Assembly (NCBI GenBank): GCA_003349915.1
Contig: QFXE01000005.1
Span: 1-64,000, forward strand
Direction of reading: 5' to 3'
From: an endosymbiont of Escarpia spicata
GTDB taxonomy: Bacteria; Pseudomonadota; Gammaproteobacteria; Chromatiales; Chromatiaceae
Length of the DNA: 64,000 bases
Shown: positions 56,780 to 63,096 of the stretch, one piece after another
How positions within the stretch are numbered: the first letter of the stretch is position 1
Layout: each line of letters starts with the position of its first letter
Notes under the pieces: model-generated
Told to the model about the DNA's origin: nothing
Databases searched by the model: none
What the model saw: the letters and a program-made list of their open reading frames with translations, nothing else
Position numbers and translations under genes: made by a program

Positions 56780-57508
56780 TCAGTGCACCGCTGCCAGACG
56801 ATCGCACTCGCTGTTACAGGGGACCACCTTGGCTGCCAAGGGAAACTGCTGCAAACGTGCAGCGAGATAGCGATAGAGTTCCCTGACCCACGCCGCGCTA
56901 TCCTGTTTGGCCGCAACAGAGTGCTGCCGGAAATCCCGCGGGGTGATCAGCACACCAGCCTGCTCCACACCGATGCGTGCCGCCAGCACAAAAAGCTCCT
57001 CGATCCCGCGATTTCCCATTGCCAGACAACCGGCAGACCAGGTGCTACCGTGAATAAATATATTTGACCCAGGCTGCATCCGTCCCTCTACTGAGGCGTT
57101 GGCCCAATCGAAGGTGTTGGGATAGTCGAGTTTCATCGAAAGGTGGAAGGCACTATTGGGGTTGAGGGCCTCGATGCGGTAGAAACCTTCGGGTACCTGC
57201 CGGTCCCCTTCCCGCAGTTTGGGTCCGCTCCCTCCGCTGGCGGCCAGCACGGGGTAATCGTGGATATGCTTCCACTGAGTATCGCTGAAGACCCACAACT
57301 CCACGATGCGGCGATCCTTCAATGCTATAAACTGGATCTGCTGCGGCGGGTATTCAACTCCTGCGTGATGAAAACGTTTCTCCAGTACCGCTTCGGCGGC
57401 AGGGGCGTAACGCTCAAGCACGCGTTTAAGATCAGGATCGATGATTGCCGAAACCTCTGCCAGAACCAGACTGCTCCACAGCAGCAGCAACAGGAGCGGC
57501 AGTCTCAC
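56780..57508 (-). CDS. YafK-type L,D-transpeptidase-family protein
   Basis: This 242-residue protein begins with a signal peptide (MRLPLLLLLLWSSLVLA) and has a YkuD-type catalytic domain. The signature is IFIHGSTWSAGCLAMGN, with the His and the catalytic Cys in the HG...GC pattern. YafK-like enzymes (DpaA) release lipoproteins from peptidoglycan rather than form cross-links, so either activity is possible. Its start overlaps the amidotransferase gene by four bases. Confidence 0.87.
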   Translation of the reverse strand: MRLPLLLLLLWSSLVLAEVSAIIDPDLKRVLERYAPAAEAVLEKRFHHAGVEYPPQQIQFIALKDRRIVELWVFSDTQWKHIHDYPVLAASGGSGPKLREGDRQVPEGFYRIEALNPNSAFHLSMKLDYPNTFDWANASVEGRMQPGSNIFIHGSTWSAGCLAMGNRGIEELFVLAARIGVEQAGVLITPRDFRQHSVAAKQDSAAWVRELYRYLAARLQQFPLAAKVVPCNSECDRLAAVH

Positions 57509-58212
57509 TTGCGTCGAACCCGTTCAAGCCAGTTGCCGTAAATCACATCAGAAACCTGATGCAGCTGTTTTATCTTTGCCGACAGATCATCGGTAATGGT
57601 CGTGGAGGATTGTGCGCAGCGGGAGGTCAACATCAGATCGCTGCCATACTTGGACAACCAGGCCTCCACCATCTCCTCGGTCATCTCCAGATGGAACTGC
57701 ATGCCGATGTGGTCGCCAAAAATATAGGCCTGATTGCGGAAACACTTGCTCTTGAGCAACGGTTCACTGCCGGGAGGCATGGAGAAGGTGTCGGCGTGCC
57801 AGTGAAAAGTATCGAAGGAGGTTGGAAGTCCATCAAGCCAGCCGGTGTGCTCTTCACCATTGATGCGCTGCAGTGGATACCAACCGATCTCCATCCCATC
57901 TCCCTTGGTGACCTCACCGCCGAGCGCCTTGCTCATCAACTGTCCACCAAAACAGATCCCCATCATCGGCACCCCGGCCTGGTGTGCCTTGCGGATCACT
58001 TCCAGCTCGGCATCCCGCCACGCCAGCGAATCGTTCACGCTCGCCTGAGCCCCCATAAAGACCAGCCCGGAGACATCATCCACCTGCGGCGGCACCGGGC
58101 GGTCCGCATCAATACAGACCAGTTCCCAGGGAACCTGATGACGATCGAGGAACTCCCCAAGATAACCGGGGCCTTCACAGGCGATATGGCGAAAGATGCG
58201 GATCGGTTTCAC
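57505..58212 (-). CDS. class I glutamine amidotransferase
   Basis: This 235-residue stand-alone amidotransferase has the catalytic Cys in GVPMMGICFGGQLMSKALGG and the His-Glu pair in GMQFHLEMTEEM, plus FHWHADTFSMPPG typical of the GMP-synthase-like subgroup. It would hydrolyse glutamine or a gamma-glutamyl compound and transfer or release ammonia; the acceptor is unknown. It is translationally coupled (ATGA overlap) to the following YafK-type protein. Confidence 0.9.
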   Translation of the reverse strand: MKPIRIFRHIACEGPGYLGEFLDRHQVPWELVCIDADRPVPPQVDDVSGLVFMGAQASVNDSLAWRDAELEVIRKAHQAGVPMMGICFGGQLMSKALGGEVTKGDGMEIGWYPLQRINGEEHTGWLDGLPTSFDTFHWHADTFSMPPGSEPLLKSKCFRNQAYIFGDHIGMQFHLEMTEEMVEAWLSKYGSDLMLTSRCAQSSTTITDDLSAKIKQLHQVSDVIYGNWLERVRRK

Positions 58213-58435
58213 GTTGACTCGGACAGCGGGGTTTAGAACTCCATTTTAACCGCGGATTCAAGGATTAGAAACCATCTAAACAGTCCACTTTAGGAATAAT
58301 CCATCACAGGCTGAAAAACAGGATTTCTAACCTTGCAGAGTCGATATTCTTGAACTATGGATTATCTGTTGAGTCGTTTATTTCCGCCCTCGCTCACCAC
58401 CAAATGGATAAAACACAACTATAAAGGGGAATGCC

Positions 58436-60262
58436 ATGTCCACAGAGATTCTCGAAACACCCGACGGCTACAAGCTCAATGCCGATAACGATACCCCGGA
58501 CTCTCGGGACCACTTCTATCAACCATCGTTGATACAACTCAAACCGGCCGTGGAACCCGACTACGTCAGTCTGAAGATTCTGGATCAGGGCAAGGAGGGC
58601 GCCTGCACCGGCTTCGGTCTGGCGGCAGTCATCAACATGCTGAATCAGAAACGGGACAGCGATATCAGGGTCAGCGCCCGCATGCTCTACAACATGGCAA
58701 AAAAATTCGACCGTTGGCCAGGTGAAGCATACTCCGGATCCAGTTGCCGGGGTGCTATTCAAGGCTGGAAGAGTATGGGTGTCTGCAGTGATGAACTCTG
58801 GCCCTATCGAAGTGAAGACCGCTCCTACCTGACCATCGAGCGCGCCAAAAACGCACGCAACAATACCGTTGGCGCCTACTACCGTCTGAAACACAACATT
58901 GCTGATTTCCACGCCGCCCTGAACGAAACCGGGGTAATCTACGTCTCCGCCAACGTCCACTCCGGCTGGTGGCCACGCAACGTCCGCCGCGGCCGCATAC
59001 ATTTCCGGGACCGTCCCCAGGGCGGACATGCCTTTGCCGTCGTCGGCTACAACGAAGCGGGTTTTCTGGTGCAGAACTCCTGGGGGCCAAGCTGGGGCCA
59101 AGACGGCCTCGCCCTCTGGAGTTATGAGGACTGGCAGGCCAATATCAAAGACGCTTGGGTGGTCCGGCTCGCCCTGCCCACGCCAAACATCTTTCCTGGG
59201 GTGGCGCATGCCAATGGCAATGAGACCGGCGAGAACTTCTCCCTCTTCAAAAAACGTCCAACCCGGGGAGAGATCGCTGGCCATTTCGTGCATATCGACG
59301 ATGGCGACCTGCATGACCAGGGACGTTACTGGAGCAAACGGGTAGACCTGCGGCAAACCGCTGATCTGGTCGCAGACAGCGAGGATTACGACCACCTGCT
59401 CTTCTACGCCCACGGCGGCTTGAACAGCATCTACGACTCTGCGCGGCGTATCAAGGCGATGAAACAGGTCTTCAAGGACAATCGCATCTACCCCTTCCAC
59501 TTCATGTACGACACCGGACTGCTGGAGGAGCTCAAAGACATCCTGTTGCGGCGCCACAGGGAAGGAGGTGAGAAAGTTGCCGGTTTTACCGACTACACCG
59601 ACAAGTTGCTTGAGAAGTCGACCCGCCCCCTCGGCCGCGCCCTCTGGCGGGAGATGAAGCTCGGCGCCAAGCGCCCCTTCAGCAGCAATGCCCGCGGCGG
59701 CATGCAGACCCTCAATGTCTTTCTCGATGCACTGTCCGAAAGCGACAAGCCCAAGAAGATCCATCTTGTGGGTCACAGCACCGGCGCCATCCTGCTGGCT
59801 TGGCTGATCAAGGCACTACCGAAAGCCAACGAGAACACAACCATCGCCAGCTGCAGCCTGATGGCCCCTGCCGCCACCGTTGATCTGTTCAGGAAAAACT
59901 TCTCCCCCGAAATCGGCAAACTGATCGAGCAGTTGCGTATCTACAGTCTCTCCAAAGAGTTGGAACTGGATGACCATGTCGCCTATGTCTATCGCAAGTC
60001 ACTGCTCTACTACGTCTCACTAGCCTGTGAAGAGGAACTGGGAGAGCAGATCGTGGGTATGGTTGAGCATAACGAACAGTTCCCCCAGGATAAGAAATTT
60101 AAAATCATCATCAGTAAAGGAAAGGATGGAGGCGAAAAACGCAGCCATAGCGAGGAACATGGTGGTTTCGATAACGACCGCACCACCATGAACGACATCC
60201 TGAAAACCATTCTTGGCAAAAAACCGAAGCGGTCTTTTGAGGACGATGACCTCGATTATTAA
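58436..60262 (+). CDS. papain-like peptidase fused to an alpha/beta hydrolase
   Basis: This 608-residue protein has two hydrolase domains. Residues about 40-260 form a papain-like C1 peptidase: oxyanion Gln51 in LDQGKEGACTGFG, nucleophile Cys57 (spacing of six, as in papain), His198 in GGHAFAVVGYN and Asn214 in VQNSWGPSWGQDG. Residues about 300-608 form an alpha/beta hydrolase: LLFYAHGGLNS, nucleophile Ser448 in VGHSTGAILL, and a late His in EEHGGFDND. It has no signal peptide, so it should work in the cytoplasm or be delivered by another route. It is preceded by an AAGGGGAA ribosome site. It stands alone, divergent from the amidotransferase gene. Substrates unknown. Confidence 0.88.
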   Translation: MSTEILETPDGYKLNADNDTPDSRDHFYQPSLIQLKPAVEPDYVSLKILDQGKEGACTGFGLAAVINMLNQKRDSDIRVSARMLYNMAKKFDRWPGEAYSGSSCRGAIQGWKSMGVCSDELWPYRSEDRSYLTIERAKNARNNTVGAYYRLKHNIADFHAALNETGVIYVSANVHSGWWPRNVRRGRIHFRDRPQGGHAFAVVGYNEAGFLVQNSWGPSWGQDGLALWSYEDWQANIKDAWVVRLALPTPNIFPGVAHANGNETGENFSLFKKRPTRGEIAGHFVHIDDGDLHDQGRYWSKRVDLRQTADLVADSEDYDHLLFYAHGGLNSIYDSARRIKAMKQVFKDNRIYPFHFMYDTGLLEELKDILLRRHREGGEKVAGFTDYTDKLLEKSTRPLGRALWREMKLGAKRPFSSNARGGMQTLNVFLDALSESDKPKKIHLVGHSTGAILLAWLIKALPKANENTTIASCSLMAPAATVDLFRKNFSPEIGKLIEQLRIYSLSKELELDDHVAYVYRKSLLYYVSLACEEELGEQIVGMVEHNEQFPQDKKFKIIISKGKDGGEKRSHSEEHGGFDNDRTTMNDILKTILGKKPKRSFEDDDLDY

Positions 60263-60394: not shown

Positions 60395-60958
60395 TCACAT
60401 CGCCATCTCTTCGGCCATGACTACATACCTCAGCGGACCACCCGGCACCAGGGCATCGAAGGGGTAACAGGTGATGAGCAATAGCTGATTATGCGCATCG
60501 GGTAACAACAGTCCGATCTCTGTTTCGTGACGTACACTCTGCTGCAAAACAGCGTAGTGGACCAGTCCCCTATCAGGGCGTTCTATCACCAGCCGATCAC
60601 CCTGTTTTAGCTGTTGCAGAAAACGGAAGTGGGTGTCCCGGTGGCCACTGACAATGCTTTTGCCCGCACTGCCGGGACGAGCGCTATTTTCGATCCAGCC
60701 CGGCCCGAAGGCGAGGGTGCGGCCACTGGCTCCGGCCAGGATGTAGCGCTCTATCTCCAACCCAGGCACCGAGAGCTTCGCCACCGGCCAAGTGTCGGCC
60801 CAGTCCCAGGGGGGTACATGATCAGATTCTGATCGGGTCTTTTCCCAGGCATCGGCGATCAGAACTTCGGAGAGCCATGCCTTGGCATGAATCCACCCCC
60901 CAGCGGTCAATTGCCAGACGGCGGCCAACAGAAGGGTTATCACCAATAATCGCTTCAT
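60395..60958 (-). CDS. class GN (proteobacterial) sortase
   Basis: Sortases cut a C-terminal signal on a partner protein and anchor it. From the ATG at 60958 this is a 187-residue protein with one N-terminal membrane helix (LLVITLLLAAVWQLTA). The sortase core has VSGHRDTHFRFL with the catalytic His, LLLITCYPFD with Cys164, and GGPLRYVVMA with the Arg. Its start overlaps the stop of the target gene (ATGA), so both are translated together. Such Gram-negative sortases usually serve a single dedicated target protein, here the VIT/VWA protein upstream. Confidence 0.94.
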   Translation of the reverse strand: MKRLLVITLLLAAVWQLTAGGWIHAKAWLSEVLIADAWEKTRSESDHVPPWDWADTWPVAKLSVPGLEIERYILAGASGRTLAFGPGWIENSARPGSAGKSIVSGHRDTHFRFLQQLKQGDRLVIERPDRGLVHYAVLQQSVRHETEIGLLLPDAHNQLLLITCYPFDALVPGGPLRYVVMAEEMAM

Positions 60959-63096
60959 GTCCTGCGTTTCCACGTCAGAACGAGCACGCTCATCAGCAAA
61001 AAAAGGCCGATCAAAAGATGTAGTGAGGCGGGAGTGGCGGTTTGAGGCATACGGCCGAACACCTTGTTCGCCTTCCAACCATGAGGCAGGTTGGTCGGCA
61101 TCGGTTTTGTTTTCAACATCTCTTCGAGTTGGCGGACGGGGGTTTTGTCCACCGCAACCAGGCTGGTGTATCGGCTGACCAGTTGGTGTTTCAGTGCGAC
61201 TTCAAGGACTGCTTTACGAATTTCCGGTTCCGGCCTGCCGCGATTGCGCTGGGCCATCAGTTCAGCGATATTCGCCCTGGCCCAGAGCAGATGCACACCG
61301 GCCCGATCACCACCACCCCCCAGCTGGATACGCCGCTGCCAAGACTCCCCTGCTCTGTCACCCTTGATGGTCAACAAACCTTGTAGTTGGTCTGCCTTCA
61401 ACACCAGCAGGATCGGCTCTCCCGCATAGAGATCAGGTAGTGGATTTGGATAGCCCTCCACCTCGACACCATCAGGCCACTGCAACTGAATATTGGTCAG
61501 CAGAGGCTGTTCCAGTTTTAGAAAGAGTGCCGCCAAACGTGACTCAACCTCTTCCAGATCCCCCACATAGGTGAAGCTGCCACGGCCAAACTCCGCAGCC
61601 TGGGACATGAAGAAGCTGTTGGGCGCTGAACCTATGCCGATGGTGAAGAGACGACTCGCTCCCAAACGACGATGGATCAGCTTAAACAGTTCATCCTCAT
61701 TGCCTACGCTGCCGTCGGTGAGGAATATCACCTGGCGCAAACGGTCGTGGGACTCCCTGCCATTGAGGGCCAACTCAAGCGCCGGTAGCATCTCAGTACC
61801 GCCATCGGCTGCCAGCGACGAAACATAATCCAACGCCTGTCTGAGATTACGCGGTGTAGCATCCACTGCATGTTGATGGAGGGCACGGGTATAGCTGCTG
61901 AACTGGATGATATTGAAGCGGTCATCCGGCCGCAGACGCCGCAGGGCAATTTTGAGCGCGGCTTTGGCCTGGGCAATGGAGGTCCCATGCATGGAGCCGG
62001 AGGTGTCGACCACAAAGATGATTTCCCGTGGTTGGGTTGGCATCACAGCATCTCCCTGGGGCGGCATTACCATCAACAATCCATATACCTCGTTGTCCCA
62101 CAACTCGGTGAAGAGAGCCGCATGAGGGGCAACTCCGAGCTTCGGCACCCAGGTCAACTCGAAATCCCGATCCGCCGGAACCTGTTTCGACTTCAGGCCG
62201 ATTTGATATCGCCCTCTGTCATCCTGGGTATGGACTATAGGATGATAGCGGCTCTCCAGAGATGCCAGCGGCAAACCCGCATCCAGATGGATATTGAAAG
62301 AGACCGGGTTGATCCGCCCCAACGCAGGATCGGCCACACTGGGCGTGATCCGGCTGGCATCAGGCACCTGATCGGTATCCGCAGCCCAGCCAGTGCCGCT
62401 GAAACCACTGCTCTCCTCCGGCACTATCGGGACGCCGGGGATATAACGCGGTGCGATGACCAGTGGGAAACGGATCTGAAATCGTCCCTGGTCATAACCC
62501 AGGCTCTGCTGGTATTCGATCTCGATAACAATCGACTCCCCCGGCCCGATATTTGCCACCGACGTGGTAAACATATTGGGCCGTTGTTGACTCAACAGAC
62601 TCGCCTTGCGCCCTTCCGACTTGGCCTTTTCGTAGGTCCTCCTGGCCTGCTGTTTCTCCTGAATCTCGCCTTCGATGACCCGCTCGCCAATGCGCATCCA
62701 CAGCCGGTCTACCGCCGCATCCTCCGGCAGGGGGAATTGATAGATCCCCTCGACCCAATCCTGACTGGGATTACTGAAGCGCTGCGCCACCTTTACCCGT
62801 GCCAGCATGCCGCTGATCTGCATCTCCACATCGGTGCTCAGGTTGGGTGCATCATCTATGCGCCGACCATCCAGTGAGTAGAGATTGAGGGTGCCGCGCA
62901 TCACCTCGTCGGCCGCCGCCAGCGCACTGCCGCTGGTACTGAGGACCAGCAGGACGAAGAACACCGATCCCGCCAGACCTGCGCCAATAGCAGCAACCAG
63001 TGTCAGCAGCATATCCTTGACGAATTCCCGGTTTCGGAGATTGATCCTGACCGGCACGTCAACGTTATCACCCGCCTGCATGAGTGAATGGCTCAT
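60955..63096 (-). CDS. sortase target protein with VIT and VWA domains
   Basis: This 713-residue protein matches the marine proteobacterial sortase target. A signal or membrane segment lies near residues 30-60 (LLTLVAAIGAGLAGSVFFVLL). A VIT domain follows (LSTDVEMQISGMLARVKVAQ; IYQFPLPEDAAVDRLWMRIG), then a VWA domain with its metal site IFVVDTSGSMHGTSI and VIFLTDGSVGNEDE. The C-terminal signal is MPQTATP, then a membrane helix and KRRT, a variant of the LPxTG/LPxTA motif for the adjacent sortase. It likely binds ligands at the cell surface. Confidence 0.93.
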   Translation of the reverse strand: MSHSLMQAGDNVDVPVRINLRNREFVKDMLLTLVAAIGAGLAGSVFFVLLVLSTSGSALAAADEVMRGTLNLYSLDGRRIDDAPNLSTDVEMQISGMLARVKVAQRFSNPSQDWVEGIYQFPLPEDAAVDRLWMRIGERVIEGEIQEKQQARRTYEKAKSEGRKASLLSQQRPNMFTTSVANIGPGESIVIEIEYQQSLGYDQGRFQIRFPLVIAPRYIPGVPIVPEESSGFSGTGWAADTDQVPDASRITPSVADPALGRINPVSFNIHLDAGLPLASLESRYHPIVHTQDDRGRYQIGLKSKQVPADRDFELTWVPKLGVAPHAALFTELWDNEVYGLLMVMPPQGDAVMPTQPREIIFVVDTSGSMHGTSIAQAKAALKIALRRLRPDDRFNIIQFSSYTRALHQHAVDATPRNLRQALDYVSSLAADGGTEMLPALELALNGRESHDRLRQVIFLTDGSVGNEDELFKLIHRRLGASRLFTIGIGSAPNSFFMSQAAEFGRGSFTYVGDLEEVESRLAALFLKLEQPLLTNIQLQWPDGVEVEGYPNPLPDLYAGEPILLVLKADQLQGLLTIKGDRAGESWQRRIQLGGGGDRAGVHLLWARANIAELMAQRNRGRPEPEIRKAVLEVALKHQLVSRYTSLVAVDKTPVRQLEEMLKTKPMPTNLPHGWKANKVFGRMPQTATPASLHLLIGLFLLMSVLVLTWKRRT

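What the first reader, a model, noticed from the sequence alone, without database searches (positions are those of the whole stretch)
58436..60262. Cytoplasmic fusion of a papain-like peptidase and a Ser hydrolase
Gln51, Cys57, His198, Asn214 of the C1 domain and Ser448 with a late His of the alpha/beta hydrolase are all in place, so both halves look active. There is no signal peptide and no operon partner. A protease joined with a lipase-like enzyme in one cytoplasmic chain suggests a toxin, effector or defence enzyme rather than housekeeping. This is the best candidate in the window for an undescribed system.
Basis: partly seen in the sequence, partly recalled or inferred. Interest (0 to 1): 0.7.

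Follow-up and report, generated by a model that had tools for sequence, protein, structure and literature searches.

The report
Latent papain-lipase fusion enzyme
A deep-sea tubeworm symbiont carries a single gene that joins a papain-type protease, apparently made in a locked form, to a lipase-like enzyme, and its relatives elsewhere are joined to or sit beside cell-wall-cutting enzymes, caspases and other proteases, which suggests a cell-killing (lytic) enzyme of a kind not yet tested.

Summary
Window 58436-60262 (+) encodes a 608-aa protein: papain-type peptidase (Pfam C1, 5.7e-11; Gln51, Cys57, His198, Asn214) fused to an alpha/beta hydrolase (DUF900; Ser448, Asp513, His575). There is no signal peptide, no operon partner and no known-defence match. 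All six genomes of the genus keep it under purifying selection (pairwise dN/dS about 0.1). About 5% of sampled Gammaproteobacteria have a relative, and both active sites are nearly invariant among full-length relatives. The two domain trees show the same clades, so the fusion is old and travels as one unit. The papain model (pLDDT 87) matches xylellain and procathepsins, including an N-terminal pro-segment, so the protease is probably latent. Relatives are fused to or sit next to endolysin-type wall hydrolases (GH108, GH19, muramidase, amidase, CHAP), GDSL-lipase-caspase/trypsin fusions or subtilisin. In one clade the same hydrolase domain is paired with a caspase instead of papain. T6SS is not enriched, and no immunity gene recurs. 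I read it as a latent protease-lipase lytic effector: a papain version of the caspase-alpha/beta-hydrolase pairs described for bacterial conflict systems. Whether the target is the producing cell (suicide) or another cell is unresolved. No activity has been shown.

The parts
58423..58429 (+). Shine-Dalgarno-like AAAGGGG, 6 bases before the ATG
   Evidence: direct reading of the sequence
58436..60262 (+). papain-alpha/beta hydrolase fusion gene, 608 aa, no signal peptide
58436..58534 (+). residues 1-33, predicted pro-segment with the conserved D-x-x-D-x-R-D motif (residues 19-25)
   Evidence: motif near-invariant and aligned to xylellain; in the model residues 2-24 align with the pro-segments of procathepsins, and mature cathepsins start at model residue 33-35
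58535..59182 (+). residues 34-249, papain (C1) peptidase domain; Gln51 58586-58588, Cys57 58604-58606, His198 59027-59029, Asn214 59075-59077
   Evidence: Pfam; invariant residues; model pLDDT 86.9 and xylellain match Z 28.3
59183..59260 (+). residues 250-275, variable linker
   Evidence: alignment A1
59261..60259 (+). residues 276-608, alpha/beta hydrolase domain; His326 59411-59413, Ser448 59777-59779, Asp513 59972-59974, His575 60158-60160
   Evidence: Pfam DUF900; invariant residues; fold not confirmed by a model (one search failed)

Best explanation
A latent two-enzyme lytic effector. The protein is made in the cytoplasm with its papain domain held inactive by an N-terminal pro-segment of the xylellain/procathepsin type. 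On an unknown trigger the pro-segment is removed or displaced; the protease then cuts proteins (possibly also the linker or a lid of its own hydrolase half), and the serine hydrolase attacks an ester substrate, most likely membrane lipid. In many relatives a cytoplasmic endolysin-type peptidoglycan hydrolase is co-encoded or fused, and it could reach the wall only after the membrane is damaged. Protease, lipase and endolysin together would dissolve a cell. The most likely use is a conflict (suicide or cell-lysis) response in the producing cell, equivalent to the caspase-alpha/beta-hydrolase pairs of described conflict systems, with papain in place of the caspase. Shown by computation: both active sites conserved, a predicted pro-segment, old fusion, the same hydrolase domain found beside papain or caspase, co-occurrence with wall hydrolases and lipase-protease fusions. 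Inferred: lipid substrate, trigger, self-target, any lethality.
For: Active-site residues near-invariant across full-length relatives; purifying selection on both halves; sporadic distribution, 19 of 369 Gammaproteobacteria and rhizobial, Paracoccus and Ideonella plasmids. Papain and hydrolase trees share their clades, and caspase-linked hydrolases form one clade nested among papain-linked ones. Amidase_2-hydrolase-caspase in one chain. Muramidase-, GH19- and PG-binding-papain-hydrolase fusions and adjacent GH108, adjacent CHAP. In three genomes the only GH108 gene is the adjacent one (frameshifted in G014). Neighbours in four loci share a GDSL-lipase half with a swapped caspase, trypsin or caspase-M15 half. 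Model matches zymogens over the N-terminal segment. Published precedents: caspase always beside an alpha/beta hydrolase in VMAP systems (PMC7159879); proteases activating co-encoded pro-nucleases in antiphage systems (PMC12799240).
Against: In the window's own genus the gene stands alone, with no sensor, NTPase, wall hydrolase or second protease beside it on its strand, and no GH108 in the genome. No defence-library match, and no recurrent defence neighbour. Caspases as such are not enriched in genomes that carry it (12 of 28 against 9 of 28). Most relatives have no recurrent partner. Lipid activity is not shown, and the hydrolase fold could not be modelled. The GH108 link may be one ancestral event.
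Confidence: 0.42

Rival explanations
1. A released lytic enzyme aimed at other cells: made without a signal peptide, let out by a holin/endolysin-type (T10SS-like) route or by lysis of part of the population, then digesting competitors, prey or surrounding polymer.
For: GH108 plus PG_binding_3 proteins without signal peptides directly adjacent in L065 and L066, and a broken one in L064; fused endolysin-type domains. Holin/endolysin routes export signal-less proteins (papers listed).
Against: No holin was found or searched for; no GH108 in the window genome; no immunity gene, which an antibacterial weapon would usually need; most loci lack an endolysin.
Confidence: 0.22
2. Ordinary intracellular or envelope turnover: a stand-alone peptidase-esterase used in protein or lipid recycling.
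For: Kept in all six genomes of the genus, in the same gene neighbourhood in the two close relatives examined, pairwise dN/dS about 0.1, no conflict genes beside it in the window.
Against: Absent from about 95% of sampled Gammaproteobacteria, horizontally distributed, repeatedly fused to endolysins, trypsin or caspase; predicted latency.
Confidence: 0.2
3. A host-directed effector used in symbiosis (tubeworm, plant), delivered by an injection machine.
For: Found in animal symbionts and on plasmids of rhizobia from nodules; xylellain-like peptidases were proposed to act in plant colonization; the window genome has a contractile-injection cluster.
Against: No T6SS in the window genome and no enrichment of T6SS or sheath genes with the gene; the gene lies on a different contig from the injection cluster; several carriers come from soil, sludge or sea water.
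Confidence: 0.1
4. A peptidoglycan- or lipoprotein-processing enzyme: the papain half cuts wall peptides, the hydrolase half cuts esters on wall or lipoprotein.
For: Wall-hydrolase partners; EAD1-linked lysozyme and papain-like wall peptidase domains are mentioned in PMC7159879.
Against: The C1 domain resembles xylellain and cathepsins, not the NlpC/P60 or CHAP wall peptidases; no export signal.
Confidence: 0.06

Closest known systems
Xylellain (3OIS), C1A peptidase of Xylella fastidiosa
   Same: Closest solved structure by sequence (profile E 9e-27) and by fold (Z 28.3, rmsd 2.4, 242 residues aligned), including the N-terminal D-x-x-D-x-R-D segment
   Different: Xylellain is a 291-residue single-domain chain with no hydrolase half
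Caspase plus alpha/beta-hydrolase pairs of VMAP (vWA-MoxR) ternary conflict systems (Kaur et al. 2020, PMC7159879)
   Same: A cysteine peptidase regularly paired with an alpha/beta hydrolase; caspase-linked hydrolases recovered here are sequence relatives of the window's hydrolase. Whether the paper's hydrolases are the same family was not tested
   Different: Papain replaces the caspase, the two are one chain, and no VMAP, MoxR or vWA conflict gene is present
Protease-activated pro-nuclease pairs and caspase-nuclease (Canu) antiphage loci (PMC12799240)
   Same: A swappable protease partnered with another, latent enzyme (analogy only)
   Different: The effector there is a nuclease; here a serine hydrolase in the same chain
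TtsA/T10SS-type GH108 muramidase modules
   Same: GH108 plus PG_binding_3 directly beside the gene in three relatives, one of them broken
   Different: No GH108 in the window genome; holin not examined

Membership tests
Peptidase family C1 (papain), xylellain type | Pfam PF00112 above gathering score and Gln-Cys-His-Asn catalytic residues | tested here: met
   43.4 bits against 20.7; Q51, C57, H198, N214 invariant in A1
Peptidase family C1 (papain), xylellain type | papain fold with N-terminal pro-segment | tested here: met
   AlphaFold model pLDDT 86.9; best match 3ois Z 28.3 over residues 1-249, then procathepsins aligned from residue 2-8; predicted, not solved
Alpha/beta hydrolase (DUF900-like) | Pfam match above cut-off, G-x-S-x-G nucleophile with acid and late His | tested here: met
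   22.7 bits against 20.5; S448, D513, H575 invariant in A1
Alpha/beta hydrolase (DUF900-like) | alpha/beta hydrolase fold | tested here: inconclusive
   full-length model failed for lack of permitted relatives (pLDDT 37)
Alpha/beta hydrolase (DUF900-like) | lipase or esterase activity | not testable with these tools
   needs biochemistry; only weak lipase/esterase matches in PDB (E 0.04 and above)
VMAP (vWA-MoxR) ternary conflict system | adjacent VMAP, MoxR and vWA genes | tested here: not met
   window neighbours are GATase, YkuD, PBP1b-like, sortase and sortase target; the VWA domain there belongs to the sortase target
VMAP-type peptidase plus alpha/beta-hydrolase pairing (works like) | peptidase linked to a related alpha/beta hydrolase | tested here: met
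   caspase-linked hydrolases nested in the same tree; caspase domains in L089, L090, L097
T6SS effector | T6SS in the genome, linkage to VgrG/PAAR/Hcp, immunity gene | tested here: not met
   no VipB in G000; rarer among carriers; no such recurrent neighbours
T10SS substrate | adjacent TtsA-like GH108 muramidase | tested here: not met
   no GH108 in the window genome; met in relatives L065, L066 and, broken, L064
T10SS substrate | adjacent holin | not tested
   -
Catalogued anti-phage defence system | PADLOC model match | tested here: not met
   no match at E 0.1

The most novel reading that the evidence does not exclude
A widespread, undescribed family of latent papain-lipase lytic effectors in Pseudomonadota, in which papain, caspase, trypsin and subtilisin are interchangeable protease partners and endolysin domains are optional add-ons: a self-contained single-gene (or few-gene) bacterial cell-dissolution module.
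Probability: 0.35. Interest if true: 0.75.

Novelty: new variant of a known kind. Interest (0 to 1): 0.5.

Why it matters
Bacterial proteases that activate or accompany killing enzymes (caspases, trypsin-like proteases) are an active field; a papain-type member fused to its hydrolase would add a third protease family used in the same way and a simple, single-gene test case. That the same hydrolase domain is found with papain or with a caspase makes the functional equivalence directly testable. It would also identify a possible self-lysis or release enzyme in the uncultured tubeworm symbionts.

Tried and rejected
Full-length AlphaFold model from six close sequences: pLDDT 37, unusable; more hydrolase relatives from permitted collections were too few, so only the papain half was modelled. 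T6SS and contractile-sheath co-occurrence: no positive association. Caspase co-occurrence at genome level: none. Defence-island test on 127 neighbours: PADLOC hits were scattered, no family in more than 4 of 127 neighbours, and Pfam families did not recur strongly. Antisense ORF 58394-59776: broken by stops in the relative L001, so probably spurious. Literature searches for the fusion returned nothing that describes it; the library lacks most subscription papers and preprints. Proteomic expression in Riftia symbionts: the main text names no such peptidase; supplements could not be read.

Full report
Observation. The gene at 58436-60262 (+) is real and as described. Pfam assigns Peptidase_C1 at residues 47-230 and DUF900, an alpha/beta hydrolase of unknown function, at 424-504, both above the gathering scores. 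Hydropathy shows no signal peptide and no membrane segment. The neighbours lie on the opposite strand: a glutamine amidotransferase, a YkuD/DpaA-like protein and a PBP1b-like protein upstream, a class GN sortase and its marine target downstream.

Origin and selection. The window is G000 contig C2. The nearest named relatives (93-94% identity) are symbionts of the tubeworms Lamellibrachia and Escarpia. All six genomes of the genus carry the gene. Nei-Gojobori estimates inside the genus give dN/dS 0.10-0.14 for the whole gene, 0.15-0.21 for the papain half and 0.08-0.11 for the hydrolase half. Outside the genus it is sporadic: 19 of 369 Gammaproteobacteria and 17 of 272 genera, other proteobacterial classes, and plasmids of Sinorhizobium, Rhizobium, Ideonella, Eleftheria and Palleronia.

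Conservation and evolution. In 19 full-length sequences Q51, C57, H198, N214, H326, H447, S448, G450, D513 and H575 are invariant. In a wider set only one alphaproteobacterial branch (L031, L032, L033, L035, L088) has lost the GxSxG serine, and it keeps the papain residues. Separate trees of the two domains recover the same clades, so the fusion is old and moves as one unit; the tree does not follow taxonomy. Hydrolases linked to a caspase (L089 and L090, single chains with Amidase_2 and caspase; L034 and L097, hydrolase gene followed by a caspase gene; L094, same gene order by homology) form one supported clade inside the papain-linked ones. The same hydrolase domain is therefore found with either protease. 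The trees are midpoint-rooted, so which pairing came first was not determined.

Latency. A model of the papain half from 25 sequences has mean pLDDT 86.9. Its best structural match is xylellain (Z 28.3), followed by zymogens (procathepsin B and K, later procathepsin L and pro-Der p 1) whose pro-segments align with model residues from about 2-8 onwards, while mature cathepsins begin at model residue 33-35. The conserved D-x-x-D-x-R-D motif at residues 19-25 also aligns to xylellain by sequence. The protein therefore looks like a cytoplasmic zymogen; this is a prediction.

Partners in relatives. The same type of protein is fused to a PF11860 muramidase (L074), GH19 (L082) and PG-binding plus GH19 (L083), or to Trypsin_2 (L032). 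Directly adjacent, same-strand genes include GH108 plus PG_binding_3 muramidases (L065, L066, and a frameshifted one in L064), and in G126, G361 and G014 that gene is the only GH108 of the genome. A CHAP protein overlaps it by 4 bases in L035, and a divergent CHAP plus PG-binding protein sits beside it in L026. In four loci (L027, L035, L080, L088) a nearby protein has a shared GDSL-lipase half of about 310 residues joined to a caspase, to Trypsin_2, or to a caspase plus peptidase M15. Subtilisin and an animal-type haem peroxidase (L031), a peroxidase (L080) and a YLATT protein and trypsin (L027) complete the picture. The wall hydrolases of L065, L066, L074 and L090 carry no obvious signal peptides. 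Most loci, the window included, have no recurrent partner.

Tests of delivery. With 28 carrier and 28 non-carrier genomes, T6SS VipB is rarer in carriers (3 against 11, Fisher p 0.03); contractile sheath (8 against 6) and caspase (12 against 9) do not differ. The non-carriers were a convenience sample, so these tests are rough. There is no PADLOC match for the protein and no recurrent defence family among 127 neighbours.

Interpretation. A latent cytoplasmic cysteine protease fused to a serine hydrolase, with endolysins and further lipase-protease fusions as partners in a minority of relatives, is best read as a lytic effector. The closest described logic is the caspase plus alpha/beta-hydrolase pairing of VMAP conflict systems (PMC7159879) and the protease-activated pro-nucleases of antiphage systems (PMC12799240). 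It is not a member of the VMAP systems, whose core genes are absent. Self-killing is preferred over attack on others because no immunity gene recurs and the parts lack export signals, but release through an endolysin-type route is a serious rival. Substrate, trigger and lethality are inferred.

Limits. Neighbour genes in unannotated genomes were called as longest open frames; the GH108 link may be a single ancestral event; the hydrolase fold was not modelled; no activity data exist.

Noticed in passing
L154:6074-15613 (G000 contig C3, about 184-194 kb): A contractile injection cluster (sheath, spike/hub and baseplate J proteins), possibly an eCIS, in the tubeworm-symbiont genome.
   Followed up: partly
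window 60395-63096 (-): Class GN sortase (TIGR03784) and its marine proteobacterial VIT/VWA sortase target (TIGR03788) as a pair in a Gram-negative symbiont.
   Followed up: no
window 56780-58212 (-): A YkuD protein resembling DpaA/LdtF (far below its equivalog cut-off) overlaps a class I glutamine amidotransferase gene by 4 bases, beside a PBP1b-like gene.
   Followed up: no
L027, L035, L080, L088: A family of proteins with a shared N-terminal GDSL-lipase half and exchangeable C-terminal protease (caspase, trypsin, caspase plus M15).
   Followed up: partly
window 58436-59191: Inside the genus, synonymous divergence of the papain half (dS 0.13-0.21) is less than half that of the hydrolase half (0.32-0.48); the antisense ORF there is not conserved, so the cause is unknown.
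   Followed up: partly
L064:310-729 (-): The GH108 gene beside the relative in G014 is broken by frameshifts.
   Followed up: yes
L100:1139-1909 and L101:7548-8732; L156:4600-6990: Contigs of the viral collection carry stand-alone papain domains 43-46% identical to the window's, and one a full-length papain-hydrolase fusion.
   Followed up: partly
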